A stretch of 40,843 nt of DNA, taken from assembly GCA_005777805.1 (NCBI GenBank), contig SXLG01000177.1, positions 1-40,843 of the forward strand. The letters run 5' to 3'. Below the pieces are notes generated by a model, which did not search any database, was not told where the DNA came from, and saw nothing but the letters and a program-made list of their open reading frames with translations. Within the stretch, counting starts at the first letter, position 1, and every line of letters begins with the position of its first letter. The position numbers and the translations under genes are program-made. This document shows, piece by piece, positions 2,340-33,215 of this stretch. This DNA comes from Pseudomonadota bacterium. Lineage in GTDB: Bacteria > Desulfobacterota > Binatia > UBA12015.

Positions 2340-2434
2340 GCGTCGCCACGGCACCATCATCGAGAGGAGGGTGCCCGGGGTACGTCATCGGCGCGCCGGC
2401 GCTCGGGATGAAGGCGCGTGAGCCGGCACCATCA
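2340..2434 (+). repeat. imperfect direct repeat, copies 75 bp apart
   Basis: The 10-mer GGCACCATCA occurs at 2350-2359 and 2425-2434. The flanks are partly similar: GCGTCGCCAC precedes the first copy and GCGCGTGAGCC the second. The second copy covers the likely GTG start of the next gene. On its own this is a modest match. It is listed because the spacing matches other gene-border repeats in the window. Confidence 0.4.
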
Positions 2435-2969
2435 CTCTCCTCCGGGAGGCGCGCTGCCGGAGCGCTCGCTCGGACTCGGCCGCGAACTCTGGGGGAGACT
2501 CTCTCCAGGCGGCGCGTCGCCGCGGCATTCCTGGCGACAGCTACGTCGCCGCCGATCCGCGGTGCTGATTGCCGGCTGGCTCGTGCTGGCAGCGGTGACT
2601 CGAGTCGCCAGCGCGCCCGTGGGCGAGGATCCCCTCACGCAGGACGAGGGCGTACCCCCAGCCACCGAGCCCCGCGCGGCGGTCGTCCTGCGCGGCGAGG
2701 TGGTCGAACCGAGCTGCTTTGTCGTCGGCAACCGCCGCGGAGAGAGCCACCGCCAGTGCGCGATCGCCTGCGCGCGCGCCGGTCAGGACCTCGCAGTCCT
2801 TGACGAGCGGAGCGGCCTGCTCTGGCTCGAGCTGCCGGACCGGCGTGAGGGCCGCGCCGAGCAGCGCCTGCTGCCGCATATCGCGCGGCGTGTCGAGGTG
2901 AGCGGGTTTGCGGCCGCACGCGGTGGCGTGCGCGGACTCATGGTCGAGTCGGTGCACGAGTTGCACTGA
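2418..2969 (+). CDS. secreted or membrane-anchored small OB-fold-like protein
   Basis: The frame encodes up to 183 residues. A basic, Pro/Gly-rich N-terminus precedes one hydrophobic segment ('SAVLIAGWLVLAAVTRVASA', about residues 47-66) that looks like a signal peptide. The mature part starts with 'VVLRGEVVEPSCFV', followed by 'HRQCAIACARAGQDLAVLDE' and 'RVEVSGFAA'. That order (GEVV..C, then H..CA..CA..G, then RVEV.G) is typical of a family of small secreted hypothetical proteins with a predicted OB fold and conserved cysteines. Function unknown. The GTG start is uncertain: a start nearer the hydrophobic segment would give a more normal signal peptide, but I see no clear ribosome-binding site for one. 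Confidence 0.65.
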   Translation: MSRHHHSPPGGALPERSLGLGRELWGRLSPGGASPRHSWRQLRRRRSAVLIAGWLVLAAVTRVASAPVGEDPLTQDEGVPPATEPRAAVVLRGEVVEPSCFVVGNRRGESHRQCAIACARAGQDLAVLDERSGLLWLELPDRREGRAEQRLLPHIARRVEVSGFAAARGGVRGLMVESVHELH

Positions 2970-3030
2970 GACAGCGGACCGCGCGGATCATCCTCGCCGG
3001 CCAGGACTCACGATCGAGTCGGTGCACGAC
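2934..3030 (+). repeat. imperfect direct repeat, copies exactly 70 bp apart, across a convergent gene border
   Basis: The segments 2934-2960 and 3004-3030 match at 24 of 27 positions with no gap. They share GGACTCA followed by TCGAGTCGGTGCACGA. The first copy encodes the last residues of the secreted protein that ends at 2969. The second lies in the 3' end of the convergent methyltransferase gene and contains its stop codon. The two unrelated genes therefore end in copies of one segment. Confidence 0.75.
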
Positions 3031-3790
3031 CTCTGAGCCCGCGGGCGAGAGCGCCGAGCGTCCGTCGCGCGATCCCCCGCACGAGCCGGACCTCGCGACG
3101 AGTCGGCGCGACGCGGTCGAGCAGCTTGCGGATCTCGGCCAGCGAGCGCGCGGGCCGCTGCGCCTTCAAATAGCCGATCGCCGCCAGCGCCTCGCCGACA
3201 TGGCTCACCAGAGCCTCGCGCTCCTCGGCCGTCGGCGGCTCGGCCTCGGCGTCAAGCCGCTCGCGCCGCCGGCCCCGCGGCGGCAGCGCGGCCAACGGGG
3301 CGGGGTCGTCGGCGGCGAGCAGAATCTCGTAGGCGAAGATCGCCGCAGCGTGCGAGAGGTTGAGCGATTCCTCGTCCCTGCCCGTCGGGATGGTCGCGAG
3401 CTCGTGGCAGAGGCCAATCTCCGCCCGGCTCAAGCCATGATCCTCCGGTCCGAAAACGACCGCGACCGGCCCGGAGCACGCCGCGGCAACGATACCCGCG
3501 GCACTCGAACGCACCGCCACCACCGGCTCGCGCCCGCCATGCATGCGGCCGATCGTGCCGACGATCCGCACGCAACCCGCGACGGCTTCGGCGAAACTCG
3601 CGACCTCGCGTCGGCGATCGAGCACATCCACGCCGCGCACCGCCCGCCGCGCCGCGGTCGTGCCGATACGGGCACGCGGCCGCACGAGCACCAGCTCGGC
3701 CACCGGAAAGCAGGCCAGCACGCGGGCAATGGCGCCGACATTGCCACTGCGCCGAGGCCGCACGAGAACGAAGCGGATCGCCGGAGACAC
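3008..3790 (-). CDS. trmJ: TrmJ/SpoU-family tRNA 2'-O-methyltransferase
   Basis: The 260-residue protein has the three SPOUT signatures in order: 'RSGNVGAIAR' (about residues 14-23), 'VFGPEDHGLS' (112-121) and 'IPTGRDEESLNLSHA' (134-148). Together they form the knotted SAM-binding site. The layout and the C-terminal helical tail match TrmJ, which methylates the 2'-O of position 32 in tRNA. The GTG at 3790 is chosen because an AGAGG ribosome-binding site lies 5 nt upstream. The frame stays open further upstream, but that part does not resemble the family. The gene is divergent from the lipoprotein at 3874 (83-nt gap, shared promoter region). Substrate position is inferred from family resemblance only. 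Confidence 0.88.
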   Translation of the reverse strand: MSPAIRFVLVRPRRSGNVGAIARVLACFPVAELVLVRPRARIGTTAARRAVRGVDVLDRRREVASFAEAVAGCVRIVGTIGRMHGGREPVVAVRSSAAGIVAAACSGPVAVVFGPEDHGLSRAEIGLCHELATIPTGRDEESLNLSHAAAIFAYEILLAADDPAPLAALPPRGRRRERLDAEAEPPTAEEREALVSHVGEALAAIGYLKAQRPARSLAEIRKLLDRVAPTRREVRLVRGIARRTLGALARGLRGRAPTRS

Positions 3791-3873
3791 GCGAACCTCT
3801 TGACCGGCGCAGCGGCATCGCGCAATTCCGCGTGGCTCGACACCCCGGAGACCCTCCGATATACGCGCCCGCA

Positions 3874-5193
3874 ATGCGTTCATGGATCGTGCTGGTCGGG
3901 GTCGCCAGTCTCGCGGGCTGCGTAAGTGGCCCGAGCCAGGAGCTGCCGCCGGCGCCCACGGCCGCACCCGGCTCGAGCGAAGTCTACCTCTACGTCGCCG
4001 AGGGCACGTCACCCGAACTCGAAACCAGCGGCGGCGCGATCAGCGTCTACCGCATCGGCAACGACGGACTCCTCGCCGGGGGCGCCCCACTCCAGACCAT
4101 CCCGGTGACCAACCCCGTCGATGTCATCATGCACCCCGCTCTGCCCGTGCTTTACGTCGCCACGCCGAGCCAGGTGCTGGCCTTCGATGCTTCAGCGGGC
4201 ACCTTGAGTTCGCTCTGCAGCGGAACCTCGGCGGGTCTGGCGCCGCCCTGTGCAACCGCACCGCGACCCGACGCGGGCGTGGCCGACCTCATCGTGCAAC
4301 AGGCCGAGAGCGGCCAGTGGATCCTCTACGCCGTCGAAGGCGGGATCCCCGGCGATTTGCTCGCACCCACTCGACTCGCCGCCTTCGATCTCGGCCCCGA
4401 GGGTGGCTTGCCCCCCTACGCTTCGAGCCAAGCCAACTATCCGAACTCGATCCTCTTCCAGGGAGCGGCGCTGACCGAGACCTACGCCTTCGTGAGCGAC
4501 GCCGGCATCAATTCGATCGTGCGCTTCGATCTCGGCGCCGACGGCGGTCTCCCCGATGTCGCACCGACGCCGTCGCCAATCGGGGAGCCCACACCTACCC
4601 CCTCGCCGACGCCTTCGCCGAGCCCGATCGGCCAGCCCACACCCTCGCCGAGCCCCTCGCCTCCGGCCTTCGATGCGGGCGCTCCGACCCAGCTCTCCGT
4701 TCTGCCGATCCTCCCGGGTCCCGCGATGACTCCCGGCGCGATGCTGCTGGCCAACGAACTCAGCAAGAACCAGATCACCGGCCGGCCGATCCCGCCTGAC
4801 GGCGTACTCGGCAACGAGCGCACCACCACGACCTACAAGATCGCCGGCCAGTTCGACCGGTTCCTCGTCAATCCCGAGCGCACGATCCTCTACGCCGCCG
4901 CCTACCAGCTCGGCCGAATCGATTGGTTCGGTCTCGATGCCGGCGGCAATATCGTCGACAACGGCGGCCGCACCTTCGAGAGCACCCCCTCGTATCCGAC
5001 TGGCCTCGCCCTGGTGTCGATGACGACCACCGGCGGGCCTCGCACCACGTTGCTGGTTTCGCTCGCCGGCTACGGCCGGGTCGATGCCTACGAAGTTGGC
5101 GCCGACGGAGGGCTCGCGAACAAGCCTTTCTCGAGCACCGAAGCGCGCTTGAACAGCTTCCCCACCGACCTCGTCGTCCACGTCGTGCCCTGA
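3874..5193 (+). CDS. lactonase-like beta-propeller lipoprotein with Pro/Thr/Ser-rich insert
   Basis: The ATG at 3874 gives a compact signal peptide ('MRSWIVLVGVASLAGC') with lipobox L-A-G-C, which is why it is preferred over the ATG 42 nt upstream. The mature protein has propeller-like repeats such as 'VYLYVAEGT', 'ISVYRIGNDG', 'VLYVATPSQVLAFDASAGTL' and 'YRVDAYEVGADGGL'-type strands. These resemble the 6-phosphogluconolactonase-like (YVTN/lactonase) fold. About residues 230-266 (4561-4671) form a low-complexity linker of Pro, Thr and Ser with repeated 'PTPSPSP' units, inserted inside the propeller rather than at an end. Expected location is the outer membrane or periplasm. Enzymatic activity cannot be judged. 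Confidence 0.82.
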   Translation: MRSWIVLVGVASLAGCVSGPSQELPPAPTAAPGSSEVYLYVAEGTSPELETSGGAISVYRIGNDGLLAGGAPLQTIPVTNPVDVIMHPALPVLYVATPSQVLAFDASAGTLSSLCSGTSAGLAPPCATAPRPDAGVADLIVQQAESGQWILYAVEGGIPGDLLAPTRLAAFDLGPEGGLPPYASSQANYPNSILFQGAALTETYAFVSDAGINSIVRFDLGADGGLPDVAPTPSPIGEPTPTPSPTPSPSPIGQPTPSPSPSPPAFDAGAPTQLSVLPILPGPAMTPGAMLLANELSKNQITGRPIPPDGVLGNERTTTTYKIAGQFDRFLVNPERTILYAAAYQLGRIDWFGLDAGGNIVDNGGRTFESTPSYPTGLALVSMTTTGGPRTTLLVSLAGYGRVDAYEVGADGGLANKPFSSTEARLNSFPTDLVVHVVP

Positions 5194-5251
5194 GCAACCC
5201 GGGGGGGCGGCACCGTGGCGGCGAGGCCATGCCAACCCGCGTCTCCTGGCT

Positions 5252-5329
5252 GCGGCCCGAGCCGTCACGCGGTTGACCTCGGGACCGGGGAGCGGGTAAC
5301 GAACGCGCGACAGCGGCGGCTCGGGCCGC
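5252..5329 (+). repeat. perfect 12-bp inverted repeat upstream of the DoxX gene
   Basis: GCGGCCCGAGCC at 5252-5263 is the exact reverse complement of GGCTCGGGCCGC at 5318-5329. The 54-nt loop contains a -35-like TTGACC (5273-5278) without a convincing -10. The right arm ends directly before the GGGAGG ribosome-binding site of the DoxX gene. It could be a leader hairpin affecting translation, or two half-sites for a regulator that loops DNA. Confidence 0.6.
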
Positions 5330-5341
5330 GGGAGGAAAGCA

Positions 5342-5773: not shown

Positions 5774-5780
5774 CGCCGGA

Positions 5781-6662: not shown

Positions 6663-6678
6663 CCGTCCCTACTCCGCC

Positions 6679-7584: not shown

Positions 7585-7708
7585 CCGTCCTGCTCCTCCT
7601 CGAGATGTTCTGGCTATCCGAAGCCCGCGGCTCAGACAATCGAAGCCCTCGCGACGGCCGGGCCAGCGGCGCCGCACGAGGGCCGGGAACGCATGATGCG
7701 GGCGGAGG

Positions 7709-7736
7709 TTGACCAAGCCACCCCGCCCCCACTAAC
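7709..7736 (+). promoter_or_regulatory. weak sigma-70-like promoter candidate for the SDR cluster
   Basis: TTGACC (7709-7714) is followed after 16 nt by ACTAAC (7731-7736), which matches a -10 box at only three positions. It lies 42 nt before the first SDR gene, a reasonable distance. The ribosome-binding site AGGAGG is at 7766-7771, 6 nt before the GTG start. The ribosome-binding site is convincing; the promoter is a guess. Confidence 0.25.
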
Positions 7737-7777
7737 TGCCGGTTGCTCCATCGACTCGAAGGAACAGGAGGTAGCGC

Positions 7778-9642: not shown

Positions 9643-9687
9643 CATGGCCCGATCGTCGACGACGGCGCCACCGCTCGGAACGGGTTC

Positions 9688-11923: not shown

Positions 11924-11957
11924 AGCGGCACGGTCGTCGCTGCGGCCGCGCCTGCCT

Positions 11958-12135
11958 GTCGCTGCAGGGCAACCGCACCGCGGGTGCCGCGGCAGCCGAC
12001 CTGAGCGACACCTGCCGGTCGCCACAGCGCAACCGTACGCTTGGGGCCACGGCGGGAACCGCGGGTCTCTGACGACGGCCGCACCGCTGTGGTCGCGACA
12101 GGGCAACCGCGCTTCGGGCCGTGGCGGGAGCCGCA
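11958..12135 (+). repeat. three degenerate tandem repeats upstream of purC
   Basis: This lies in a 315-nt gene-free stretch (11924-12238). The 19-nt segments GTCGCTGCAGGGCAACCGC (11958), GTCGCCACAGCGCAACCGT (12018) and GTCGCGACAGGGCAACCGC (12092) agree in all three copies at 15 positions. They are 60 and 74 bp apart. A second shared block rich in GGC follows each copy (about 11981, 12044 and 12116). In addition ACCTGAGCCACAC (11905), at the 3' end of the preceding gene, recurs as ACCTGAGCGACAC at 11999. No protein coding is evident. Purpose unknown. Confidence 0.75.
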
Positions 12136-18460: not shown

Positions 18461-18580
18461 GGCCCCAGGGATTCATGACGGCTCCGACACAGCGTACGCC
18501 TGCGAATAGCGGCCGCATCGCCCGCCGCGGGGAACCCGGGCATTCGTGATGCCTCCGACGCCGCGTGCGCCCACACCGGG
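18461..18580 (+). repeat. imperfect direct repeat duplicating the start of the CHAD gene, offset 71 bp
   Basis: ATTCATGACGGCTCCGAC (18471-18488) and ATTCGTGATGCCTCCGAC (18542-18559) match at 15 of 18 positions. Similarity continues for another 16 nt at a lower level. The second copy is the start region of the CHAD gene. The first copy opens a 24-codon ORF (18475-18549) beginning 'MTAPTQRTPANSGR', against 'MPPTPRAPTPGR' of the real gene. The preceding CGGCCCCAGGGATTCATG is also close to CGGCCCCCGGGATTCGTG at 20169. Confidence 0.7.
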
Positions 18581-19670
18581 GCGGGCTCCGACGCTGGGCG
18601 CTTGCGCCACGACCTGGCTTGACAAGCAATGTAAACGTCTCTTCGATTGCCTCGCGGCCGCGCTCGACGGCCGCGACCCCGAAGGCGTCCATGATATGCG
18701 CGTGGCCACGCGACGACTGCGCGCCGCCCTCGAGGTCTTCGCGCCCTGGATGGCGCCAGCTAGCGCAGACCAGGTGGGTTGCCACCTGCGACGTCTCGGG
18801 CGAGCACTCGGGCGGACGCGCGAAATCGACGTGGCGTTGCTCCAGCTCAGCCAGGCCGGCGACCGCACCACGCCGGAGCGACGACTCGCCATCGAGGAAG
18901 TGAGCGCGTGTCTCGTCAAGAAGCGCCGCAAGGCACGGCGGCGCATGATTCGCGCCTTCGCGGCAGTCGATCTCGACCGCCTGCGGCAGACACTCGAGGC
19001 CCTGCCACGGGAACACCTCGCGGTTTCGGCGAGCGCGCTGCCCTTCGTCACCCTGGCCGCGGCGGTTAGCCCCGAGCTGCTAACGGCCGCGCGAAGGATC
19101 GTCGCCGCGGCCGAGATGCGCGCCGAGGTCGGCAGTGCCGAGGCTCTCGACATCCTGCACGCGACGCGAATCGACGCCAAGCGTCTGCGCTACCGGATCG
19201 AAATCCTCAAGCCCGGACTCGGAGACGCTGCCGGGGAGGCCCTGGTCGCCCTGCGGCAGTTGCAGGATCACCTCGGCGGCCTGCACGATGATTCTATTCT
19301 GGTCGCTCTTCTGGCCGAGGTCGGCGGCACGGTGCGCGAATCCTCACGCCCTCTCCTCGCAGCCGAAGTGCAACGGCTGCACGCCCTGCGCGGGCAACGC
19401 CTGCGCCGGGACGAGAAGGCCTGTCGCCACGACCTCGCCACCCTCGCCGCGAGCGGTTTCGTCGAATCGCTCGAGGTTCTCCTGCGGGAAGCCGCGCCGA
19501 CAGCACCCGTGCCCGCCGACCCCCGGGCCGATTTCGCCACCCCCGAGCTCCCGGATGAGAACACCGGGACGCCGTCGCAGCTTCTTCCAGAAGCGCCGAC
19601 GCTGCCGTGCGACCCGCCGCGCACGCCACTAAAGCGCCCCCGTGCCTCGCACGATGCAGCCTTGGATTGA
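18549..19670 (+). CDS. CHAD domain protein
   Basis: The 373-residue product has the helical CHAD domain: 'GVHDMRVATRRLRAALEVF', 'LRRLGRALGRTREIDVALLQL', then 'ILHATRIDAKRLRYRIEIL' and 'LRQLQDHLGGLHDD'. The conserved His and Arg/Lys residues of both helical repeats are present. CHAD domains are known to bind inorganic polyphosphate, and this one lacks an attached CYTH phosphatase domain. A polyphosphate-granule role is therefore plausible, not proven. The tail after about residue 320 is Pro-rich. ATG 18549 and GTG 18546 are both possible starts; a 24-codon upstream ORF ends across them (TGATG). Its end overlaps the MEKHLA gene. Confidence 0.86.
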   Translation: MPPTPRAPTPGRAPTLGACATTWLDKQCKRLFDCLAAALDGRDPEGVHDMRVATRRLRAALEVFAPWMAPASADQVGCHLRRLGRALGRTREIDVALLQLSQAGDRTTPERRLAIEEVSACLVKKRRKARRRMIRAFAAVDLDRLRQTLEALPREHLAVSASALPFVTLAAAVSPELLTAARRIVAAAEMRAEVGSAEALDILHATRIDAKRLRYRIEILKPGLGDAAGEALVALRQLQDHLGGLHDDSILVALLAEVGGTVRESSRPLLAAEVQRLHALRGQRLRRDEKACRHDLATLAASGFVESLEVLLREAAPTAPVPADPRADFATPELPDENTGTPSQLLPEAPTLPCDPPRTPLKRPRASHDAALD

Positions 19671-20121
19671 ACCGCGACTGGTGGCTCACGCCTGCCTGCT
19701 CGTCGAGTCCTATCAGCGCATGGTCGGCCGGCCGCTGCTGCACGCGGCCGGTGACACGACGGGCATCGCTGGTGCCCTCTATCGCGCTCCGTTCGTGGTG
19801 GTGTCGCACGACACGGCCGATCCGCCCTGTCTCAACTATGGTAACCAGAGGGCCCTCGAACTCTGGGAGATGAGCTGGCCGCGCCTGATCGGGACGCCCT
19901 CGCGCGAGACGGCGGAAGCTGCGGAGCGCGCCGCCCGAGAGCGTCTGCTGGAGCGGGTCGCACGCGAGGGCTTTGTCGACGACTACACCGGCATTCGTGT
20001 GTCGAGCCGCGGCCGACGTTTCCGCATCGACCGGGCCACGGTGTGGGCCGTGGTCAGTCCCGAAGGTCGCCCCGCCGGGCAAGCAGCAACGTTTTCTGAG
20101 GTGACGTTCCTGGATCCCTGA
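19654..20121 (+). CDS. MEKHLA domain protein
   Basis: The 155-residue protein reads 'LLVESYQRMVGRPLL', 'LYRAPFVVVSHDTADPPCLNYGNQRALELWEMSW', 'PSRETAEAAERAARERLLERVAREGFVDDYTGIRVSSRGRRFRIDRATVW' and 'GQAATFSEVTFL'. That is the complete MEKHLA domain (PAS-related), first described in plant HD-ZIP III proteins and common as a stand-alone bacterial protein. It is thought to be sensory, with unknown ligand. The ATG at 19654 overlaps the end of the CHAD gene by 17 nt, so coupled expression is likely. A GTG 12 nt earlier is an alternative start. Its final codons and stop are echoed 73 bp downstream. Confidence 0.9.
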   Translation: MQPWIEPRLVAHACLLVESYQRMVGRPLLHAAGDTTGIAGALYRAPFVVVSHDTADPPCLNYGNQRALELWEMSWPRLIGTPSRETAEAAERAARERLLERVAREGFVDDYTGIRVSSRGRRFRIDRATVWAVVSPEGRPAGQAATFSEVTFLDP

Positions 20122-20400
20122 GCGCGGGGCGATGCCTGCGGCGACGGCTCTGGTCTGAACGGACTCGCGGCCCCCGGGATTCGTGGATCCCTGAGCATGA
20201 GGCGCGATGCGACGCGCCAACCGGCCGCCCAGATCCGCCACCACGCCGTCGCCACGAGCGGCGCGCTGGCGCGTCCATACGAGAATCGCCCTGGCACCAC
20301 CGCTGCGACCGCCCGCGCGACGCTTCGGCCGAGGCCGCAGCACCACCCCGCGTGAGAATCGCCCCGTGCCCCCCCCTGCGGCCGTCCCTCCGTTGGCGAC
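20107..20400 (+). repeat. degenerate tandem repeats of about 73 bp after the MEKHLA gene
   Basis: TTCCTGGATCCCTGAGC (20107-20123), the last codons and stop of the MEKHLA gene, recurs as TTCGTGGATCCCTGAGC at 20180 (16 of 17, offset 73). CGATGC also recurs downstream of both. Further on, GAGAATCGCCC at 20281 recurs at 20354, again offset 73, and the next 30 nt are similar (CTGCG, CCG and CCC blocks). The whole 296-nt gap thus looks like a decayed array of four units. No gene is evident in it. Confidence 0.75.
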
Positions 20401-21230: not shown

Positions 21231-21303
21231 GCCACCCTAGCTCAGTTGGGAGAGCAACTGATTCGTAATCAGTAGGTCGCCGGTTCGAGTCCGGCGGGTG
21301 GCT
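21231..21303 (+). tRNA. tRNA-Thr (anticodon CGT)
   Basis: A full cloverleaf can be drawn. Acceptor GCCACCC (21231-21237) pairs with GGGTGGC (21296-21302). The D stem is GCTC/GAGC. The anticodon stem ACTGA/TCAGT has loop TTCGTAA, so the anticodon is CGT and reads ACG (Thr). The T stem is GCCGG/CCGGC with loop TTCGAGT. The discriminator base is T at 21303, and CCA is not encoded directly after it. All stems are perfect. Confidence 0.96.
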
Positions 21304-22964: not shown

Positions 22965-23377
22965 GCTCGCGCCACCGCCTAACACATCCGCCGCCACGGG
23001 ATCTCGTCGTCCCGCTATTCGGCCCGCCGCCCGAAGGGAGGCACGAGAACCTGTAAAAACGACTCCCGCAGATCGACACACCCGCCGCGACGATGGTCCT
23101 CTCGGCCAGTCGACTGCGGCCCGGGAGCTCGTCGTGAGTCACCGACCGACGTCGAACCTGCCCGATCGAGGTGCCCGGACGAGTTCAAGGCGGTCGTAAC
23201 AGGCGCCATCCCTCTCGCCCGCAGGAGTAGATCTCGATCCCGCGCCACGGCGTGTCCGACCACGCGGGCTGCGCGGAGATTGGCGATCGCGCCACGCCAG
23301 ACCTTGATCCCGCGGCCACGGCGTTGACCGATCGGGCCAGTGCGACATAGTGACTTCGCACCAATCCCCGCGTGGAG
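22965..23377 (+). other. gene-poor stretch upstream of the beta-helix protein
   Basis: About 410 nt without a recognisable gene. Short minus-strand frames (such as 23185-23418, 77 codons) exist, but their products match no family I know and they have no clear ribosome-binding site. The stretch contains the 70-bp-offset repeat at 23236/23306. Confidence 0.5.
23231..23375 (+). repeat. imperfect tandem repeat, unit 70 bp
   Basis: GATCCCGCGCCACGGCGT (23236-23253) and GATCCCGCGGCCACGGCGT (23306-23324) are identical apart from one inserted G. Weaker similarity extends through the rest of the 70-nt unit (GGGC, TGCG and CGC blocks). The second unit ends right at the ATG (23378) of the beta-helix gene's putative signal peptide. 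Confidence 0.7.
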
Positions 23378-24230: not shown

Positions 24231-24330
24231 CCGGCAGGGCTCGGCCACACGGCGACAGCGGCGCCACGCGCCTCGCAGGGTTGGCGGCGCAAAGCGTGAG
24301 TTCGGCGGGACTCGGCTACGCGCGCGACCC
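24231..24330 (+). repeat. imperfect direct repeat just after the beta-helix gene, offset 71 bp
   Basis: GGCAGGGCTCGGCCACACGG (24233 on) resembles GGCGGGACTCGGCTACGCGC (24304 on). With small gaps about 20 of 24 positions agree, and the CTCGGC core is offset by exactly 71 bp (24240 and 24311). It starts within 10 nt of the stop codon at 24222-24224. The rest of the 271-nt gap to the next gene shows nothing else. Confidence 0.6.
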
Positions 24331-25446: not shown

Positions 25447-25487
25447 CTGGCACGCTACCTGTCGCCCGGCAGAGGCGTCGTCCCACT

Positions 25488-25893
25488 TTGCGGAAGATCC
25501 CGTTCGCCGTGCTGGCGATACGCCGGACGACCGCAGAGACCGACCGATCATCCCCGCCAGGAGCCCATGCGACAGCGTGCGTCGTCGATGGGCGAGACCG
25601 ATCTGCCATCTCCTGCGACGATAGATTTCCGACGCCGGGGCTCTCGTTTTACCATTTCGAGCTTGAGTTCGAGGCCGGGGACGTGCGATGCTTGAGCGTC
25701 TGCACCTACTTACTGACCGAGAGCGGTGCACCGGCCGGCGCCTGCGACAATGCCGAGGCCTGCACCGGCAGCGCTGCCGCCTGCCCGGCCGACGCCAAGA
25801 GCACCGCCGAGTGCCGCGCGTCGGCCGGCGCCTTCGACCCGGCCGAGAGCTGCGACGGCGCGTGTCCCACCGACGTCAAGCTGTCCGCGGTTG
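25488..25893 (+). pseudogene. 5' part of a Cys-rich repeat protein, separated from its 3' part by a frameshift
   Basis: This frame reads 'CLSVCTYLLTESGAPAGAC', 'CTGSAAACPADAKSTAECRASAGAFDPAESCDGACPTDVKLSAV'. These are disintegrin-like Cys repeats, with some cysteines lost ('AGAFDPAES' where 'AGxCDPAES' is expected). At about 25890 the repeat continues one frame over as 'CRSSAGICDPAESCDG' in the gene annotated from 25688. One base is missing between GCGGT and TGCCGC. The N-terminal 50 residues show no signal peptide and no family resemblance, so the 5' end looks damaged as well. A sequencing or assembly error is possible. Confidence 0.6.
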
Positions 25894-26878
25894 CCGCTCC
25901 TCGGCGGGCATCTGCGACCCCGCCGAATCCTGCGATGGCGCGGGCGACGACTGTCCCACCGACCTGCTGACCGTCGCCGGCACCGAGTGTCGCGCCGCCA
26001 GCGACGTCTGCGATCTCGCGGAGGAGTGCACCGGCAGAGCGGTCGCCTGTCCGACCGACGCCCTGCTGCCCGACGGCACGGTCTGCGACGACTCCGACGA
26101 CTGCACCGTCGACGACCAGTGTGAACTCGGCGTGTGCACCGCCGACGCCGAGTACGCCATCCACCGGCGCGCGAGCTTCGGCCCCGAGGCCATCCTCGGC
26201 GATGATCTGAACGTGTACGCCACTTCCGGCATGACCGTGTTCGCGATCGGCTCGGGTGCCGAGGAGGGAACCCTGATCACCTCGGCCCGGGTACGCATGG
26301 GCATGGGCGCCGCCATTCATGACGTCGCCACCACGGCCGTGGCCGGCAAGGGTACGGTCAACGGCACGCAGTCGCCCTTCCCGAGCCTGCCCGACTTCGA
26401 CACGCGCTTCCCCGAGCCGGTCGTCGCCTGTGGCGGCGAGTCCCTCACGCTGGCCGTGGACGAGCAGCGCGACATCAGGCCGGGCAGCTACGGCGACGTC
26501 TACATGCTCGATCGCGCCCAGCTTCATCTTGCAGCCGGCAACTACTCGTTCTGCAACATCGAAATGTACAACGAAGGGCAGATCCTCGTGACGAGCGGCA
26601 CCGACGCCACCTCGATCGACGTGAGTGACGAGTTCCGCACCGGCTTCGGCGTGCGTCTGGCCGCGACCGGCGACGGCACGCCGGCACCGACGCTGCGGGT
26701 CGCCGGCGCGCTCTTCCTCAAGAACGACAACGAGATCGATGCCCACATCTACGCGCCGACGGCGGCGATCCGTGCCGGCCGCGGCACGGACCTCAGAGGG
26801 AGCGTCATCGCCAATGTCTTGGCCGCCAAGGTCGCCGGACGGGTGGGCTGCTCGCTGCATGGCGAGCCCACGCCGTAA
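25688..26878 (+). CDS. Cys-rich repeat plus beta-solenoid surface protein (3' part of a frameshifted gene)
   Basis: The meaningful protein starts at about 25891. Before that, this frame is an out-of-frame reading of the upstream repeats. It has disintegrin-like units 'CRSSAGICDPAESCDG', 'CRAASDVCDLAEECTG' and 'DDCTVDDQCELGVC'. These are followed by a beta-rich domain: 'RPGSYGDVYMLDRAQLHLAAGNYSFCNIEMYNEGQILV', 'LRVAGALFLKNDNEIDAHIYAPTAAIRAGRGTDLRGSVIANVLAAKV'. The C-terminal domain resembles a beta-solenoid family that often follows these Cys repeats in deltaproteobacterial surface proteins. Probably extracellular. Any reconstruction should join it to the upstream frame by adding one base near 25890. 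Confidence 0.7.
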   Translation: MLERLHLLTDRERCTGRRLRQCRGLHRQRCRLPGRRQEHRRVPRVGRRLRPGRELRRRVSHRRQAVRGCRSSAGICDPAESCDGAGDDCPTDLLTVAGTECRAASDVCDLAEECTGRAVACPTDALLPDGTVCDDSDDCTVDDQCELGVCTADAEYAIHRRASFGPEAILGDDLNVYATSGMTVFAIGSGAEEGTLITSARVRMGMGAAIHDVATTAVAGKGTVNGTQSPFPSLPDFDTRFPEPVVACGGESLTLAVDEQRDIRPGSYGDVYMLDRAQLHLAAGNYSFCNIEMYNEGQILVTSGTDATSIDVSDEFRTGFGVRLAATGDGTPAPTLRVAGALFLKNDNEIDAHIYAPTAAIRAGRGTDLRGSVIANVLAAKVAGRVGCSLHGEPTP

Positions 26879-27133: not shown

Positions 27134-28777
27134 CTAGGGCACGCCCGCGACGGGCTGGAAGAGCACGTCGCACGGGCCCCCAACCGTCACGGTGGCGGTC
27201 TGCGACGGCTCGGCACAAGATTCGCCGCGCGTGCGAGCACGGCAGGTCAGTGCCAGCGGCTGCCCGCTCGCGAGCCAGGGCGGGACGCGCCGGTGGCGCC
27301 CCACACTCACGAAGCCACAGCTGGCTGGAGTGCCATAGGGCCGGCATCGCTCGACCGGGCGCAACTTCACCTGGCGCGCATCCAACACGAAGCCCGGATA
27401 GTCGTCGCTCGTCTGGATCACGTCACGCTCGGCTTGGTCGTCGATCGAAACCGTGCGGAAGGCAAAGCCGCCCTCGCGCCGCGCACCGACCTCGACCCGG
27501 CGGTTGGCGATCAAGGCAAAATCGCTCCCGCGGCGTGCGACCGCACCCGTCATGTACTCGATCCGAGGATGCCCCGGAAAGCATTTCCCCATCGCAGGCG
27601 GGTGGTAGTAGTGGCGCAGATTCCGCGGGGAGCCGCCGGTCACGCCGGCGAAGGCCACCGCCAACGCGCGGTCGCCACCGAAGAGGATCGCCTCGATGTC
27701 GGGGCGACTCTGGTCGTACATCGCCTGTAGGCGGCCGGCGTCGTCGTCGCCGGCAAGGTCGGGGCGCAGGAAGCACGACGCAAGCCCCGAGATCTGCGTG
27801 AGGTACTCGTCCCAGATGTTGTACTGCGAGGGTTCCGCAGCAACGCCGGCGATGTCACCGCGGTAACGGCAGCCCTGCCGGGGCGAGCACGCTTCGCCGG
27901 CTCGGTTGCGCAGCGAGAGGGCGATCGCCATGCGCTCGCAGGCGCCGTAGGCGCTGCAGCCCCGACCGAGATGGGCCTCGAAAAGTGCGGTGCGCATCGC
28001 GTAGTCGAGGTGACGGGCGCGCTCGAGTCGTGCGGTCGGCCAGCGACCTGCCTGCTCCGCCGCGAAGCGAGCCCAGGCCCGCGCCAGCGCATCGCGCCGG
28101 CCGATCAAGTACTGCTGCACGGCCGTGCAGTGCGGCGAACCATGAAACGCACGCACGATCGCGTCGAGATCGCTACCCGGAGAGACGGCTGGTCTGGACG
28201 GCGCCGGCTGCGGATCGAACCAGGGCGCCTTGTCCATCGCGTAGAGATTCCGGGCGTCAAGGACAGTGCGTACACCCGCCGGGCAGTGATGATTACGAAC
28301 CTCGCGACCGCGCCGCGCCGCAAGGGCGGCACGAAACGTCGCGGCCGAGGCGCGCGTGGCGCGGCGGGAATCGACCACGACCTCGAAGCCCACCCACGGC
28401 ACGCCGCCGGCATCGACCAGCGGCCGCCCGGCGCGCACAACGAGGCAAGGAATGACCGATGTGCCCTGTGCGAGCGAGCCGGCAGGCCTCGCCCGAGATC
28501 CACGCGCCGCCACCTCGGCCACGGCGTAAAATGGGACGTCGAGCGCATTATTAGTGCGATAGAGCGTCAGCACGGGCGTGGCGGGGATGGCCAGCGCGAG
28601 CCGCGGCGACTGCGCGCCGAGCAGCGCCAGCGAGACAGCCAACGCCACGCCGCGCCAGCAGCGGGCGCGCACGACTCGATTCCTGACCGACACCGCCCTT
28701 CGCCCCCCGGCCGCCAACCATCCACCGCTGCCCAGATCCATCGCGGGCCGGCCAGCCTTCCCGAGCAACGCCTTCAT
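27134..28777 (-). CDS. large secreted protein of unknown function
   Basis: From ATG 28777 the product is 547 residues. A long basic N-terminus and hydrophobic segment ('WRGVALAVSLALLGAQSPRLALA') suggest export, with the mature protein starting near 'IPATPVLTLYRTNN'. The central region has many paired cysteines. Conserved-looking stretches include 'RHLDYAMRTALFEAHLGRGCSAYGACERMAIALSLRNRAG', 'EPSQYNIWDEYLTQISGLASC' and 'GKCFPGHPRIEYMTGAVA'. The 'ERMAIALSLRNR...PSQYNIW' pattern loosely recalls cell-wall hydrolases of the SleB type, but I cannot confirm it. The start is uncertain (28741 is an alternative). It lies 110 nt downstream of another secreted-protein gene on the same strand. Confidence 0.7.
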   Translation of the reverse strand: MKALLGKAGRPAMDLGSGGWLAAGGRRAVSVRNRVVRARCWRGVALAVSLALLGAQSPRLALAIPATPVLTLYRTNNALDVPFYAVAEVAARGSRARPAGSLAQGTSVIPCLVVRAGRPLVDAGGVPWVGFEVVVDSRRATRASAATFRAALAARRGREVRNHHCPAGVRTVLDARNLYAMDKAPWFDPQPAPSRPAVSPGSDLDAIVRAFHGSPHCTAVQQYLIGRRDALARAWARFAAEQAGRWPTARLERARHLDYAMRTALFEAHLGRGCSAYGACERMAIALSLRNRAGEACSPRQGCRYRGDIAGVAAEPSQYNIWDEYLTQISGLASCFLRPDLAGDDDAGRLQAMYDQSRPDIEAILFGGDRALAVAFAGVTGGSPRNLRHYYHPPAMGKCFPGHPRIEYMTGAVARRGSDFALIANRRVEVGARREGGFAFRTVSIDDQAERDVIQTSDDYPGFVLDARQVKLRPVERCRPYGTPASCGFVSVGRHRRVPPWLASGQPLALTCRARTRGESCAEPSQTATVTVGGPCDVLFQPVAGVP

Positions 28778-28887
28778 GACCACGCCAAGCGTCCCCTTAT
28801 GAGCGTGCCCACAGGCGTTCTCAGGAGCAGCACAGACCCGCGCAACGCGAAGCATCGCATGAGCCGCCGTGTCTGTTCGGGCCCGCG

Positions 28888-30489
28888 TTACTGCTGATAG
28901 AGCAGCACGAACCGCGAATCGGCGGCGAGACCGGCAGCGTCGGTGCATCCCACGCCGACGAGCGCCGTGCGCGCCGGATCCGCCATCAGCGTCTCGACCT
29001 GGCAGGCGTGCGCCCCGCCGCCGTCGTACGCCGTCACGTGCACGACCGGGTGGACCGTGTCGCCGGCCCCACCAGGGCCGACCGGAGCCGCGAGAAGGGG
29101 CAGCGCCACTTCGTATCGCCCCGTGCCGCTACGAGTGATGGTGTTCGTCTGACCACGCGAGTGCCACTGATACTGGGTTGACGGCGTGTAGCTCGCCGCG
29201 GTCGGATCATCCGCCCAGAGGTAGGCTGCTTCACCACCTCCGGGTGCCAGTGGCGCCTCGTCGACATAGGTCAGTGCCCAGCGCGAGTTTGCGGGAATCC
29301 CGTTCAGATCGAAGCATCCCACGCTCACCTGGAGGTCGGCGCCACTAGCTCCCCAGTACCTGATCTGACAGGTGCGAGAACCGTTCATCGTCGTCAACGC
29401 CACCGCCCCCCCGTCTCGACCGAGGCCCGGAAGCGTCGCTTGATAGATTCCTGGAGAGACGACATCGATCCGGTTCGGGCGCCCGGTGGAGTTGTAGTTG
29501 AAGAGAAGGTTGGGAACGTAGCTCGTGGAATCGGTGGCATCGGTACTGAGATAGGCACGCCGTCCGGTTCCCGCCGCCGGACGCGAGAAGTGGACGAAGA
29601 AGCGGGTGTCGGCTGGATTGCCAGCGGCATCGTCACAGTTGACGTGGATCGTCTCGGCGTCGGTCGCCGCGCCGAAGAACCCGGTCATGTCGCAACGCCG
29701 CACCGCGGGCAGGACAGAGCGGGCGACGACGTGCGCGATGCCGCCGAGATCGCCGGTCAGCAAGCTGTTTCGCCCGACGCCCGGCATGGTCACCTCGTAG
29801 CGCCCCGGGCTACTTCGCCCGACGCTGACGTAGCCGCTCGCCGAGCTGTATGCGTTCTCGACCGGCAGCTCGACCGGTGACTCGGGTGATGCCGTCATGG
29901 CCCAGGCACCCGCCGATACCTGGGGTGGACAGACGATGCCCCCCGGGCTCGTGCCACAACGCGCGGCCGGAGTGAAACTCTGCAAGCCCTGGTTCCAGAC
30001 CAGCGAGAGGCTCTCGCCGAGTCCGGGAAACTGGAGCGCCTCGGCCGATCCCACGGCGCCAGGCAGGAAGGGCACGCCGAGCGTCGTCACCGTGAAACTG
30101 GCGCGGCCGAACTCGACACCATCGGCGTAGGCCACAGTCTCGTGCGCTCCCGCGCCGAGCAGTCCATAGTTCCACAGCAGCCCGAAGCCGTTGTTGGCAT
30201 CACCGCAGGACGGAATCGTGTCGTCACGCGTCGTGCCGTAGGCGGCTTCGATCGGCGTCCCGCCATCGAAGGCGATCGTGATCTGGCCCGCCGAACAATG
30301 CCAGCCCGAGACCAGCGAGATGCCTCCCATCGCGGAGTTGGCGCCGGGATTCTCGAGCACGCCCTGTGCTGCGGCCACCGCCGGCACGATGGCGGCGCCG
30401 AGACCGAGCAAAGCGCCAGAGCCGCGTCGCCGCAGCAAGGCCCAGCGACCGCGGCCGACGAAGGTGCGTCCCGATTCGTGGTGCGACAT
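28888..30489 (-). CDS. secreted protein with three about 100-residue beta-rich repeats
   Basis: ATG 30489 is chosen because GGGAGG lies 4 nt upstream; the ATG 12 nt earlier would place that site inside the gene. The 533-residue precursor has a signal peptide ('GALLGLGAAIVPAVAAAQ'). An N-terminal domain ('GVLENPGANSAMGGISLVSGWHC') is followed by three repeats. Each repeat has 'GRYEVTMPGVG'-like, 'C...' and 'V.C.D.AGNPADTRFFVHF'-like blocks (for example 'GIYQATLPGLG', 'GCFDLNGIPANSRWALTY' and 'GRYEVALPLL', 'GCTDAAGLAADSRFVLLY'). Repeats occupy roughly residues 205-533. Such repeats occur in many uncharacterised bacterial extracellular proteins. Function unknown. Confidence 0.82.
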   Translation of the reverse strand: MSHHESGRTFVGRGRWALLRRRGSGALLGLGAAIVPAVAAAQGVLENPGANSAMGGISLVSGWHCSAGQITIAFDGGTPIEAAYGTTRDDTIPSCGDANNGFGLLWNYGLLGAGAHETVAYADGVEFGRASFTVTTLGVPFLPGAVGSAEALQFPGLGESLSLVWNQGLQSFTPAARCGTSPGGIVCPPQVSAGAWAMTASPESPVELPVENAYSSASGYVSVGRSSPGRYEVTMPGVGRNSLLTGDLGGIAHVVARSVLPAVRRCDMTGFFGAATDAETIHVNCDDAAGNPADTRFFVHFSRPAAGTGRRAYLSTDATDSTSYVPNLLFNYNSTGRPNRIDVVSPGIYQATLPGLGRDGGAVALTTMNGSRTCQIRYWGASGADLQVSVGCFDLNGIPANSRWALTYVDEAPLAPGGGEAAYLWADDPTAASYTPSTQYQWHSRGQTNTITRSGTGRYEVALPLLAAPVGPGGAGDTVHPVVHVTAYDGGGAHACQVETLMADPARTALVGVGCTDAAGLAADSRFVLLYQQ

Positions 30490-30611
30490 TGAGCCTCCCA
30501 TGCACGGCTGCCCAGCCGCGCTGCCGCGGCAACTATCCGCCGTTCGCAGCTCAAGTCAACTTCGGGGCGCCATGCGTGTAGCTGTCCCTTCCAGTCACGG
30601 AGGAAAGCGAA

Positions 30612-30680
30612 ATGAGGACTCATTCCCGGCAGCAGGCGGAGCAGAGATTCGCGCCCGGCGTGCTGCTCAGACCTGAGTAG
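30612..30680 (+). CDS. possible 22-residue small ORF with a strong ribosome-binding site
   Basis: GGAGGAAAGCGAA directly precedes an ATG that opens a 22-codon frame ('MRTHSRQQAEQRFAPGVLLR', then PE) ending in TAG at 30678-30680. The last codons overlap the end of the convergent permease gene. The ribosome-binding site is as good as that of real genes here, but the peptide resembles nothing known. It may be a remnant or chance. Confidence 0.2.
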   Translation: MRTHSRQQAEQRFAPGVLLRPE

Positions 30681-32199
30681 CGCCGCGGCGCCAGAGGAAC
30701 GCTGCGGGTAGCCCGCAGGCGACGATCGCGAAGCCGGGCCACGTCGCGGACGGCTTGACGATCAGGAGATCGACGGTAATCGCGAGCGCCAGCGCGACGT
30801 AGACCGCCGGCAGCAACGTCCCCGTGCGCACGCCTCGCGTCGCGGCCACGAACTCGGGACGCCGCCGGAGACGGAACAGGCCGAACATCGTCAGGGCATA
30901 GAACACCAGCGCGGTTGCGATCACGTAGTCGAGCAACTGGCCGTAGCGTCCCGAGAGAGCGAGCACGGATGCCCAGAGACCTTGCGCCACGAGGGCACGT
31001 TGCGGCACGCCATTGTTCGCGAGTCGCGCCAGGCCGCGGAAGAACAAACCGTCGGCCGCCATGGCCTGAATCAGCCGCGGGCCGGCGAGCACGAGCCCGT
31101 TGGCGCAGCCGAACGTGGAGACCATGACGAGAATCGCCATCACAACCGCGGCGTCGCCACCGATCGCCGCGCCCATGGCCGCGGTCGCAACCCGACCACC
31201 GGGCGCCGCGGCCACGCTGCCCCCAAGGCCATCCATCGACGCGCCGTCGCGCGCCGGCAGAATGCTCAGGTAAGCAAGATTCACCAGCAGATAGAGCCCG
31301 ACCACGATCATCGTTCCGACCAGCAGCGCCCGCGGCAGGGTGCGGTGGGGCTCGCGCACCTCGGCCGCGGTGAACGTGACATTGCTCCAGGCATCGGCCG
31401 AAAACAGGGCTCCGACCATGGCCGCGCCGAAGGCGGTCACGATCCAGCCGTTGGCAAACTCAGTGCTGAACGGTGCTGCGAGATTGGCGGCCACGGCCTG
31501 ACTGTTCCACCCCGGGCCAAGGCCGATGAGCACGATCGCCACCAACGCAGCTAGCTTGACCACGGTGAAGGAGTTCTGGATACGCTTGCCGACATGCAAG
31601 CCGCGCGCGTTGGCCGCGGTGAGAAGCGCGATCATCGCCACCGCCACGAGCTGGCGCGCCGAAATCGAGAACCCAGCCATCCGAACCCACACCGGATCAC
31701 CGAGCGCCGGCACGATCTCCGCCAGGTACGTGGCAAACGCCACCGCAACCGCAGCGATGGTCCCGGTCTGGATGACCAGCGCGAGTGTCCAGCCGTAGAG
31801 GAACCCGGCCAGCGGGCCGAAGGCCTCGCGCAAGAATACATACTGGCCACCGGCACGGGGGTAGGCGATCGAGAGTTCGGCGAAAGCACGCGCCGCCACC
31901 ACGGTCATTGCCCCGGCCAGCGCCCAGACGGCGACGAGCCAGCCCGCCGTGCCGACCTCATGGGCGATCTCCGCCGGCACGATGAAGATCCCCGAGCCGA
32001 TCATCGACCCGGCGACGATCATGGTGGCGTCGAAGGGACCGAGCAGCCGCCGGTAACCCCCGCCGCTCGCCCGCCTCTGCGCGGGCGGTGCCGGCGCCGC
32101 TGCGCCCGCAGCCGCGCCGGCCATCCCGCGCCGGTCACTCGCGCGACCCTGCTCGCTCGAGGCCCCGCGAGTCGCCGCATCCCGACCGTGGTCCGCCAC
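30667..32199 (-). CDS. APC-superfamily amino acid permease
   Basis: The protein (about 510 residues) has twelve hydrophobic segments after a low-complexity N-terminus of roughly 45 residues. The first membrane helix carries 'VAGSMIGSGIFIVPAEIA', the GSGIF substrate-binding turn of amino acid transporters. 'AFAELSIAYPRAGGQYVFLREAFG' and 'FSADAWSNVTFTAAEVREPHRTLPRALLVG' are typical of the LAT/basic amino acid permease branch. It should import or exchange amino acids across the inner membrane. The GTG at 32199 has AAGG 4 nt upstream; an internal ATG (32124) is an alternative start, given the Ala-rich leader. No metabolic neighbours indicate the substrate. Confidence 0.92.
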   Translation of the reverse strand: MADHGRDAATRGASSEQGRASDRRGMAGAAAGAAAPAPPAQRRASGGGYRRLLGPFDATMIVAGSMIGSGIFIVPAEIAHEVGTAGWLVAVWALAGAMTVVAARAFAELSIAYPRAGGQYVFLREAFGPLAGFLYGWTLALVIQTGTIAAVAVAFATYLAEIVPALGDPVWVRMAGFSISARQLVAVAMIALLTAANARGLHVGKRIQNSFTVVKLAALVAIVLIGLGPGWNSQAVAANLAAPFSTEFANGWIVTAFGAAMVGALFSADAWSNVTFTAAEVREPHRTLPRALLVGTMIVVGLYLLVNLAYLSILPARDGASMDGLGGSVAAAPGGRVATAAMGAAIGGDAAVVMAILVMVSTFGCANGLVLAGPRLIQAMAADGLFFRGLARLANNGVPQRALVAQGLWASVLALSGRYGQLLDYVIATALVFYALTMFGLFRLRRRPEFVAATRGVRTGTLLPAVYVALALAITVDLLIVKPSATWPGFAIVACGLPAAFLWRRGATQV

Positions 32200-32349
32200 G
32201 CAACCTTCATCGCACGTTGCACACTCGCCGGCGACCGCAGCGTCGCGTTGCGCTCGGCCCGCCGGCGCGACGCGAGGATCTCCCCTCTTGCGAAACCCGC
32301 GCGCGTCGGGCGACGGGTGGGTCCCGCTGGAGCGGGGGATCGCGCCAGC

Positions 32350-33078
32350 TCAGTCGAGCAGGAACCAGGTCACGGTCGTGACCACACGCACGATCTTGTC
32401 GATCTGCTTCTCGGGCCGCTCTCCGGGAATCTCCACCGCGGGCCGGATCTCGATGACGCCCTGACTGGCGTTCTGGATCGAGCCGACGCGAGCACCGGAT
32501 TCGGTGGCAAAGATCTCGGCGGCCTCGCGCGCGCGCTGTGCCGCCTCCGCCAACATATCCCTCTTGACGGAGGCCAGATCGGTGAAGACGTACGACGGAC
32601 CCGCGCTGAAGCTGTCGGACGCGAACGCGACTCCGGCCTTCAGCAAGTCGCCCACATTGCGCGCGGCACTGGCCAGGCGCTCGACCTCACCCGTGCGGAC
32701 CAGCAGGTCCTCGGTGAGCACGAAGCGGAACTCCGCAGGCGTTTGCGCGGCGTTGAAGCCCGCCATGCGGTCCTCGACCTGGATGTTCTGCACGCCAAAG
32801 CTGCTCTCCGGAAAGCCGCTGGCGCTCAGGTACCCGGCCACCGCCCGCTCGGACTTCTCGAGCACCCCACGCGCCGTCTCGAGACTCGGGCCGCTCGCCG
32901 TGAAGCGGATCGGCCAGAATCCGAGATTAGACTTGACTTCACGTTCGGCGAGTCCCTTCACGGTGACGGTCCGGAAGCCGAGCCGGCTTTCGACCAGCGA
33001 CTGGCCGCCGAGGAAGCCGGCCGAGGCCAGCCCGCAGGCGACGATCAGAGCAGCGAGAATGCGGCTTACATTCGACAT
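32350..33078 (-). CDS. SIMPL (DUF541) domain protein, periplasmic
   Basis: The 242-residue precursor has an N-terminal hydrophobic signal or anchor ('RILAALIVACGLASAGFLGG'), then 'TVTVKGLAEREVKSNLGFWPIRFTASG', 'AGYLSASGFPESSFGVQNIQVEDR' and 'DMLAEAAQRAREAAEIFATESGARVGSIQNASQGVIEI'. That is the SIMPL domain from end to end. These are periplasmic proteins implicated in envelope stress, mostly uncharacterised. GGGAGAG lies 6-7 nt before the ATG. Upstream on the same strand is the DUF4236 gene; downstream the permease gene starts after 150 nt. Confidence 0.9.
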   Translation of the reverse strand: MSNVSRILAALIVACGLASAGFLGGQSLVESRLGFRTVTVKGLAEREVKSNLGFWPIRFTASGPSLETARGVLEKSERAVAGYLSASGFPESSFGVQNIQVEDRMAGFNAAQTPAEFRFVLTEDLLVRTGEVERLASAARNVGDLLKAGVAFASDSFSAGPSYVFTDLASVKRDMLAEAAQRAREAAEIFATESGARVGSIQNASQGVIEIRPAVEIPGERPEKQIDKIVRVVTTVTWFLLD

Positions 33079-33100
33079 CGGAGTCTCTCCCGGAGGTGAG

Positions 33101-33215
33101 GATCATAACCGGCGCCCGTGCAGAAGCCACCGGCCGTGGCGCACGAGACCGCGTTTCGGGGCGACGCCAACAACCACGGGATCGGCGCCGGTGCATAATC
33201 CGCCCGCCATGGCAC
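33101..33215 (+). repeat. imperfect tandem repeat, unit 73 bp
   Basis: GGCGCCCGTGCAGAAGCC (33111 on) and GGCGCCGGTGCATAATCC (33184 on) belong to 30-nt segments that match at 24 positions without gaps, offset 73. Both are preceded by GGATC, and another GGGATC occurs at 33243. The repeat lies in the 241-nt gap between the SIMPL gene (5' end at 33078) and the DUF4236 gene (3' end at 33320). I see no gene in the gap. Confidence 0.7.

What the first reader, a model, noticed from the sequence alone, without database searches (positions are those of the whole stretch)
2340..33215. Recurrent gene-border direct repeats with a common offset of about 70-73 bp
At least eight intergenic regions contain imperfect direct repeats of 17-40 nt. 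Offsets: 2934/3004 (70), 18471/18542 (71), 20107/20180 (73), 20281/20354 (73), 23236/23306 (70), 24240/24311 (71), 33111/33184 (73), 2350/2425 (75), 11958/12018/12092 (60, 74) and 14633/14698/14772 (65, 74). The repeated sequence mostly differs between loci, so this is not one dispersed element. It looks like repeated local tandem duplication of about one 70-bp unit at gene ends or starts, followed by decay. The narrow offset range would point to a specific mechanism or a length constraint (a structural unit, a bound protein or a copying error). I know of no described system with this signature.
Basis: seen in the sequence. Interest (0 to 1): 0.75.

Follow-up and report, generated by a model that had tools for sequence, protein, structure and literature searches.

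The report
Genome-wide CRISPR-like spacer insertion scars
At more than a hundred places between the genes of this bacterial genome a short local sequence (about 37 bases where best preserved) occurs twice around a stretch of about 35 bases, and these are likely scars of a CRISPR-type spacer-inserting enzyme, itself not found in the genome, that worked all over the chromosome instead of in one array.

Summary
In 1.40 Mb sampled from this 3.6 Mb bin, noncoding DNA has 136 direct-repeat matches at lags 70-74 (score >=14) against 0-2 in ten shuffles, with a spike at exactly 72. Coding DNA has no such spike. One S is a 34/34 copy of a distant gene (type II secretion protein F). Another pair is R-S-R in one strain haplotype and a single R in another, and its S matches another contig over 27 of 28 nt. 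Some loci are short arrays with one repeat and different spacers. This is the product expected from off-target CRISPR spacer integration ("neo-CRISPR"); a same-genus genome has a CRISPR array with a 37-nt repeat. Against it: no Cas1 in either genus bin (70% and 88% complete), three of four spacers searched genome-wide had no source, the genus array has period 74, not 72, and a third of the loci have shorter lags that I cannot fully explain. Window loci are eroded members, assigned by resemblance.

The parts
2934..2959 (.). R copy 1 of pair at lag 70 (second copy 3004-3029); lies in the last 36 nt of the predicted + gene 2562-2969
   Evidence: 26 nt, score 22; gene
3004..3029 (.). R copy 2 of the 2934 pair; 2960-3003 is the stretch between
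11951..11993 (.). first repeat of a three-copy cluster (11951 / 12011 / about 12091), lag 60
   Evidence: 43 nt, score 21
12011..12062 (.). middle repeat of the cluster; matches 12091-12134 at lags 74 and 72
   Evidence: scores 15 and 17; gapped alignment 12017-12062 with 12091-12134
12091..12134 (.). third repeat of the cluster
18464..18500 (.). R copy 1, 37 nt, lag 71
   Evidence: score 21
18501..18534 (.). S, spacer-like 34-nt stretch between the copies
   Evidence: follows coordinates
18535..18571 (.). R copy 2
20107..20131 (.). R copy 1, lag 73; contains the 3' end of the predicted + gene 19654-20121
   Evidence: 25 nt, score 17; gene
20180..20204 (.). R copy 2 of the 20107 pair
20281..20314 (.). 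R copy 1, 34 nt, lag 73
   Evidence: score 18; family D2
20354..20387 (.). R copy 2 of the 20281 pair; 20315-20353 is the stretch between
33110..33149 (.). R copy 1, 40 nt, lag 73
   Evidence: score 20
33183..33222 (.). R copy 2 of the 33110 pair; 33150-33182 is the stretch between
23229..23314 (.). weak pair 23229-23244 / 23299-23314, lag 70
   Evidence: score 12, near the shuffle level
24232..24322 (.). weak pair 24232-24251 / 24303-24322, lag 71
   Evidence: score 12, near the shuffle level
   Evidence: score 12

Best explanation
The repeat pairs are likely scars of off-target CRISPR-type spacer integration, in which pieces of DNA of about 35 nt were likely inserted at scattered, mostly noncoding sites, each insertion presumably duplicating the 36-37 bp of target it landed in. 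The inferred mechanism is that an integrase of the Cas1-Cas2 kind joins a short double-stranded fragment to the two strands at points 36-37 bp apart, and gap repair then gives R-S-R with a fixed offset of about 72. Shown: the noncoding spike at lag 72; R of 36-37 bp with sharp ends in the three best-preserved pairs; R sequences unrelated between loci; one S that is an exact copy of a distant gene segment; one strain haplotype with R-S-R where another has a single R; loci with three repeats and different spacers. Inferred: the direction of change (insertion rather than loss), the identity of the enzyme, and that the eroded loci, those of the window included, arose in the same way. Insertions at gene 3' ends would be tolerated because the duplication leaves the gene end intact; most others in genes would be purged. 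Repeats at one site would then grow by further insertions (R-S1-R-S2-R) or by slippage (whole 72-nt units).
For: Lag spike and controls. Sharp R ends: background identity outside R in 78 pairs. Length: of 66 pairs filtered to R 33-41 nt, lag 70-75, score >=14 and over 30% noncoding, 28 have R of exactly 36 or 37 and 31 have lag 72. The three best pairs, L196 37/37, L029 36/36 and L216 36/37, have S of 34, 35 and 35. S origin: the L196 spacer is 34/34 identical to C189:28505-28538, in a frame that matches Pfam T2SSF at 2.6e-21, with unrelated flanks; the L049 spacer (38 nt) matches contig C78 over 27 of 28 nt, E 1.2e-7 against the 1.40 Mb sample. Presence/absence: contigs C12 and C67 overlap at 96.6-98.5% identity; at this place one has R, the other R-S-R, one 72-nt unit more. 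Array growth: of ten successive-match candidates the clearest (L183 7211, L018 7756, L022 15747, L023 12099) have one repeat and different spacers. Position: in the 66 loci, 19 copies contain a predicted CDS 3' end and 2 a 5' end. Same-genus G001 has a CRISPR array with three 37-nt repeats and two 37-nt spacers. CRISPR repeats are the target duplications of spacer integration, generally 25-50 bp, against 14 bp for a casposase (PMC6977970, passages). Cas1-Cas2 integrates outside arrays in vitro (PMC6895254, passages) and in vivo when overexpressed (PMC11788318, passage citing Nivala 2018).
Against: No Cas1 (PF01867) in G000 (70% complete) or G001 (88%); only 2 of 14 genomes of the family have one, and one of these (G003) shows no lag-72 signal in the 8.4 kb of noncoding DNA sampled. 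Of 4 spacers searched genome-wide (parts of 27-30 nt, up to 3 mismatches) only 1 had a second copy; L029, L216 and L208 had none in the bin, and exact parts of L029 and L216 are not in the viral contigs. The native G001 array has period 74 (37+37), the scars 72. No target motif, border-base preference or shared repeat sequence was found, although in vitro off-target sites of one system prefer G. No PAM could be derived. Match lengths vary: at lags 70-74, 59 of 125 are under 34 nt, 32 are 34-39, 8 are 40-45 and 26 longer; three matches are perfect over only 20-25 nt (L182, L180, L028). 64 of 198 loci have lags of 54-69, while my simulated later indels put only 3-14% there, so later deletion does not account for them as modelled. 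Five noncoding matches cover 100 nt or more, whole 72-nt units, which needs slippage as a second step. The C12/C67 difference could also be loss of a unit between direct repeats.
Confidence: 0.66

Rival explanations
1. Insertion of about 35 nt with a 36-37 bp target duplication is right, but the enzyme is not Cas1-Cas2: an unknown integrase or transposition-like repair process with the same geometry.
For: No Cas1 in either genus bin; the period differs from the array of the sister species; no canonical array in the 1.40 Mb of G000 sampled.
Against: I know of no other enzyme class with target duplications this long (from general knowledge). CRISPR loci are often lost from MAGs (general knowledge), and G001 has an array but no Cas1 either, so its bin may simply lack the genes.
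Confidence: 0.19
2. Ordinary tandem duplication of about 72 bp by slippage, followed by decay.
For: Five noncoding matches of 100 nt or more are whole-unit repeats; some loci have gapped similarity next to R above the 99% control level (S against right flank 10 of 105, against left flank 8 of 105, left against right flank 5 of 105).
Against: Background identity outside R; perfect 36-37 nt repeats with abrupt ends; simulated full 72-bp duplications give more long matches (0.14-0.27 at 52-64 nt) than seen (0.07) and fewer at 36-39 nt (0.11-0.14 against 0.22); S copied from a distant gene.
Confidence: 0.08
3. Functional paired elements (regulatory sites or RNA structures) kept by selection at a fixed spacing.
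For: Common in intergenic DNA; narrow spacing.
Against: Almost no shared sequence between loci, no excess RNA folding, all four gene orientations affected about in proportion, presence/absence between strain haplotypes at one locus.
Confidence: 0.03
4. Assembly artefact.
For: The bin is fragmented, with 141-nt exact contig-end overlaps.
Against: Copies differ by about 20% on average; no spike in coding DNA; similar pairs in an independent same-genus bin.
Confidence: 0.02

Closest known systems
Neo-CRISPR loci / off-target (non-canonical) spacer integration by Cas1-Cas2 (Nivala, Shipman and Church 2018; not held; seen only as cited in PMC11788318, PMC9456107 and PMC11687729)
   Same: Short insert flanked by a duplicated target of CRISPR-repeat length at a chromosomal site outside an array.
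   Different: Reported for overexpression in E. coli and, as I recall the abstract, a few natural cases. Here it is over a hundred sites in 39% of one genome, and the integrase was not found.
Canonical CRISPR array (e.g. G001 contig C10)
   Same: Repeat of about 37 nt, spacer of similar length, some loci with several repeats and different spacers.
   Different: Every locus has its own repeat; period 72 against 74; mostly one spacer; no cas genes identified.
Casposons (Cas1-family transposons)
   Same: Target duplication by a Cas1-family integrase.
   Different: 14-15 bp duplications (PMC6977970 passages) and long elements with terminal inverted repeats; here inserts of about 35 nt, unrelated to each other.
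Minisatellites / MIRU-type intergenic tandem repeats (recalled)
   Same: Intergenic, tens of bp, tandem.
   Different: Those repeat the whole unit, often with a shared family sequence; here mostly half the unit is repeated and loci are unrelated.

Membership tests
Off-target Cas1-Cas2 spacer integration (neo-CRISPR) | Insert flanked by direct repeats of CRISPR-repeat length made from the target | tested here: met
   R 36-37 in the three best-preserved pairs, peak at 36-37 in 66 filtered pairs; single R in the other haplotype of L049
Off-target Cas1-Cas2 spacer integration (neo-CRISPR) | Insert of spacer length | tested here: met
   S 34, 35, 35 in the three best pairs; native G001 spacers are 37
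Off-target Cas1-Cas2 spacer integration (neo-CRISPR) | Insert copied from a protospacer elsewhere | tested here: inconclusive
   Met for L196 (34/34) and nearly for L049 (27/28); not found for L029, L216, L208 in a 70% complete bin
Off-target Cas1-Cas2 spacer integration (neo-CRISPR) | cas1 and cas2 in the genome | tested here: inconclusive
   Cas1 model found nothing in G000 or G001, both incomplete; Cas2 not searched
Off-target Cas1-Cas2 spacer integration (neo-CRISPR) | PAM beside the protospacer | tested here: inconclusive
   One clean source only
Off-target Cas1-Cas2 spacer integration (neo-CRISPR) | Period equal to that of the native array (expected, not strictly defining) | tested here: inconclusive
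   Scars 72; the only native array seen is in the sister species G001, 74, with two spacers; none seen in the sampled part of G000
Canonical CRISPR array | One conserved repeat family | tested here: not met
   Repeats unrelated between loci
72-bp tandem duplication (minisatellite) | Whole unit repeated | tested here: not met
   Background identity outside R for 78 pairs; exceptions: 5 matches of 100 nt or more
Casposon | 14-15 bp target duplication and Cas1-solo gene | tested here: not met
   36-37 bp; no Cas1 in the bin; casposase value

The most novel reading that the evidence does not exclude
This bacterial genus has a runaway spacer integrase, possibly not Cas1 at all, that seeds short self-derived DNA all over the chromosome and builds small CRISPR-like arrays from arbitrary target sequences. 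New arrays would then arise from any noncoding DNA as a normal part of genome evolution.
Probability: 0.3. Interest if true: 0.92.

Novelty: new variant of a known kind. Interest (0 to 1): 0.8.

Why it matters
Off-target spacer integration has been proposed as a route by which new CRISPR arrays arise, but as far as I know it is seen mainly on overexpression. A genome with over a hundred such scars would show that it can be a major natural mutational force, would give a large natural data set on integrase target choice, and would show neo-arrays gaining further spacers. If Cas1 is truly absent, it would point to an unknown integrase with the same ruler.

Tried and rejected
RNA structure: no excess folding in 105 loci against 105 control noncoding segments. 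Inverted repeats: only a mild excess near the centre, not pursued. Common motif: a few k-mers are raised (z up to about 6 among many tested, e.g. ACTCGA) but without a fixed position; best alignments between R or S of different loci barely exceed controls (mean 6.98-6.99 against 6.72-6.87). Border bases: an apparent G preference in 26 pairs faded in 66 (G 32, C 24). Hidden gapped homology: the gapped aligner was run without a control and I think it over-extends; with permuted controls the median locus shows none, a minority does. Variable R length: an early reading (R 17-38) was dropped because short high-identity matches are what older repeats of about 36-38 nt leave by chance (simulations) and because the best pairs, which overlap predicted genes, had been masked out; it is not excluded. 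Coding repeats of 24 codons: lags 71 and 73 are frequent and not multiples of 3. DNA wrapping as a ruler was considered and not tested. Phage origin of S: exact parts of two spacers (L029, L216) not in viral contigs. Genes around the CRISPR array on G001 contig C10: ten predicted proteins gave transposase, helicase-like, regulatory and metabolic families, none a Cas protein, only a weak CARF-model hit on a LuxR-type protein. The simulation stopped with an error and was rerun.
Full report
Observation. The pairs are in the window at most of the stated places; seven of twelve are strong, three weak, two unsupported. The window is contig C173 of a 3.61 Mb, 194-contig bin (G000), 70% complete. I sampled 1.40 Mb of G000 and predicted genes with a simple codon-usage finder of my own. 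Noncoding DNA shows a spike at lag 72 (66 matches of score 13 or more at 72, 30 each at 71 and 73), a harmonic near 144 and a low shoulder at 54-69. Shuffles give 0-2 where the real count is 136 (lags 70-74, score 14 or more). Coding DNA has 43 such matches at 70-74, the second highest of 14 bins ranging 17-47, so a mild rise over 65-79 but no spike; in the first 0.8 Mb there was no rise at 70-74. Scaled by size, about 320-350 sites in the bin; this is an extrapolation.

Anatomy. In 78 merged pairs with matches of 48 nt or less, identity is about 0.8 inside the match and at background outside. The repeated part therefore ends sharply. When masking of coding DNA is lifted, the best-preserved pairs appear: L196 12916 (37/37, S 34) and L029 9786 (36/36, S 35), both with one copy over a predicted gene 3' end, and L216 15968 (36/37, S 35), inside a predicted frame. 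In 66 pairs filtered to R of 33-41 nt, 28 have R of 36 or 37 and 31 have lag 72; the filter itself limits R, so only the peak within it counts. In the unfiltered noncoding set at lags 70-74, 59 of 125 match lengths are under 34 nt, 32 are 34-39, 8 are 40-45 and 26 are longer. Simulations of fixed repeats of 36-38 nt with 15-45% divergence give a similar spread, full 72-bp duplications do not; none of the models gives the shoulder at 54-69 (3-14% simulated, 32% seen). In the 66 loci, 19 copies contain a predicted gene 3' end and 2 a 5' end: an insertion that duplicates its target leaves the gene end whole.

Origin of the inner stretch. The 34-nt S of L196 occurs once more in the genome, on C189 at 28505-28538, 34/34, with unrelated flanks, inside a frame that matches the type II secretion protein F family (Pfam T2SSF, E 2.6e-21). 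The S of L049 matches C78 over 27 of 28 nt. Three other spacers searched genome-wide (L029, L216, L208) had no second copy at up to 3 mismatches over 27-30 nt. Of 59 spacers compared with the 1.40 Mb sample, L049 is the only convincing distant match among the twelve best listed; one other (L218) is a nearby tandem repeat in predicted coding DNA, and the rest are at the level of the R control.

Strain difference. Contigs C12 and C67 cover the same place from two strains (270 nt at 98.5% and 323 nt at 96.6%). C12 has a single R; C67 has R-S-R with one extra 72-nt unit; there are other small differences. The order of events cannot be read from two alleles; the outside origin of S favours insertion. 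Two other contig overlaps that I looked at gave no further case.

Array growth. Ten candidates have two successive matches, two of them from one cluster. The clearest, L183 7211, reads R-S1-R-S2-R at 73 and 72 with unrelated spacers; the first two repeats are more diverged than the last two, as if spacers were added in turn. Some candidates are weak (score 12). Five matches of 100 nt or more repeat the whole unit and are best read as later slippage.

Distribution. Same-genus G001 shows matches at lags 70-74 in 26 kb of noncoding DNA (6 at score 15 or more), but two of the loci listed are its native CRISPR array at lag 74, so about four remain. Four other genera of the family gave 0 at lags 70-74 in about 34 kb of noncoding DNA together, where the G000 rate would give about 31 at score 12. 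G003, one of those four, does have a Cas1.

Mechanism. A repeat of 36-37 bp made from the target, an insert of about 35 nt copied from elsewhere, and stepwise growth at one site are what spacer integration by Cas1-Cas2 makes; CRISPR repeats are themselves the target duplications of that reaction (PMC6977970, passages). Off-target integration is documented in vitro (PMC6895254, passages) and in vivo on overexpression (PMC11788318 and PMC9456107, passages, citing Nivala 2018, which I could not read). G001 has a 37-nt-repeat array, so the genus has had such a system. The missing Cas1 is the main weakness: both bins are incomplete, and G001 has an array without any Cas1 in its bin, so loss in binning is plausible but unproven. 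The 72 against 74 period and the shoulder of shorter lags are further weaknesses.

Novelty. Literature searches on neo-CRISPR, off-target or non-canonical integration, spontaneous CRISPR loci, casposase target duplication, orphan single-spacer repeats, integration outside arrays and 72-bp intergenic duplications (I saw the listed titles and abstract openings, and passages of five papers) showed no report of a genome filled with such scars; the library holds open-licence papers only. I rate it a new variant of a known kind. On checking I lowered the main confidence slightly (0.68 to 0.66) because the simulations do not reproduce the shoulder of shorter lags.

Noticed in passing
L148 (G001 contig C10) 10571-10755: A canonical CRISPR array with three 37-nt repeats and two 37-nt spacers at the contig end, beside a DDE transposase gene, with no cas gene among ten proteins tested on the contig; the repeat was not found in G000 at up to 3 mismatches.
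   Followed up: partly
noncoding DNA of G000, lags 54-69: A broad excess of direct repeats (64 loci) below the main lag, with small bumps near 58-62; not reproduced by simulated later indels; perhaps a second size class.
   Followed up: partly
L057 909-1157, L026 2390-2599, L026 5246-5428, L208 3133, L202 10533: Arrays in which the whole 70-72 nt unit is repeated, unlike the R-S-R pairs; probably later slippage.
   Followed up: partly
L216 15968-16076: A well-preserved pair (36/37, lag 72) wholly inside a predicted coding frame; 72 is a multiple of 3, so it may be an in-frame insertion of 24 residues, or the gene call is wrong.
   Followed up: no
window 25717-26035: Cysteine-codon-rich imperfect repeats of about 88-90 nt in a reading frame 25688-26878; Pfam gives only a sub-threshold disintegrin match (5.6e-6, below cut-off). 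Looks like a protein repeat, unrelated to this finding.
   Followed up: partly
window 21231-21303: The only Rfam hit in the window at gathering threshold, a tRNA on the + strand.
   Followed up: no
G000 contigs C12/C67, C35/C36 (L204/L205), C7/C84 (L008/L183): Overlapping contigs at 97-99% identity suggest that the bin mixes at least two strains; exact 141-nt contig-end overlaps suggest assembly at k=141.
   Followed up: partly
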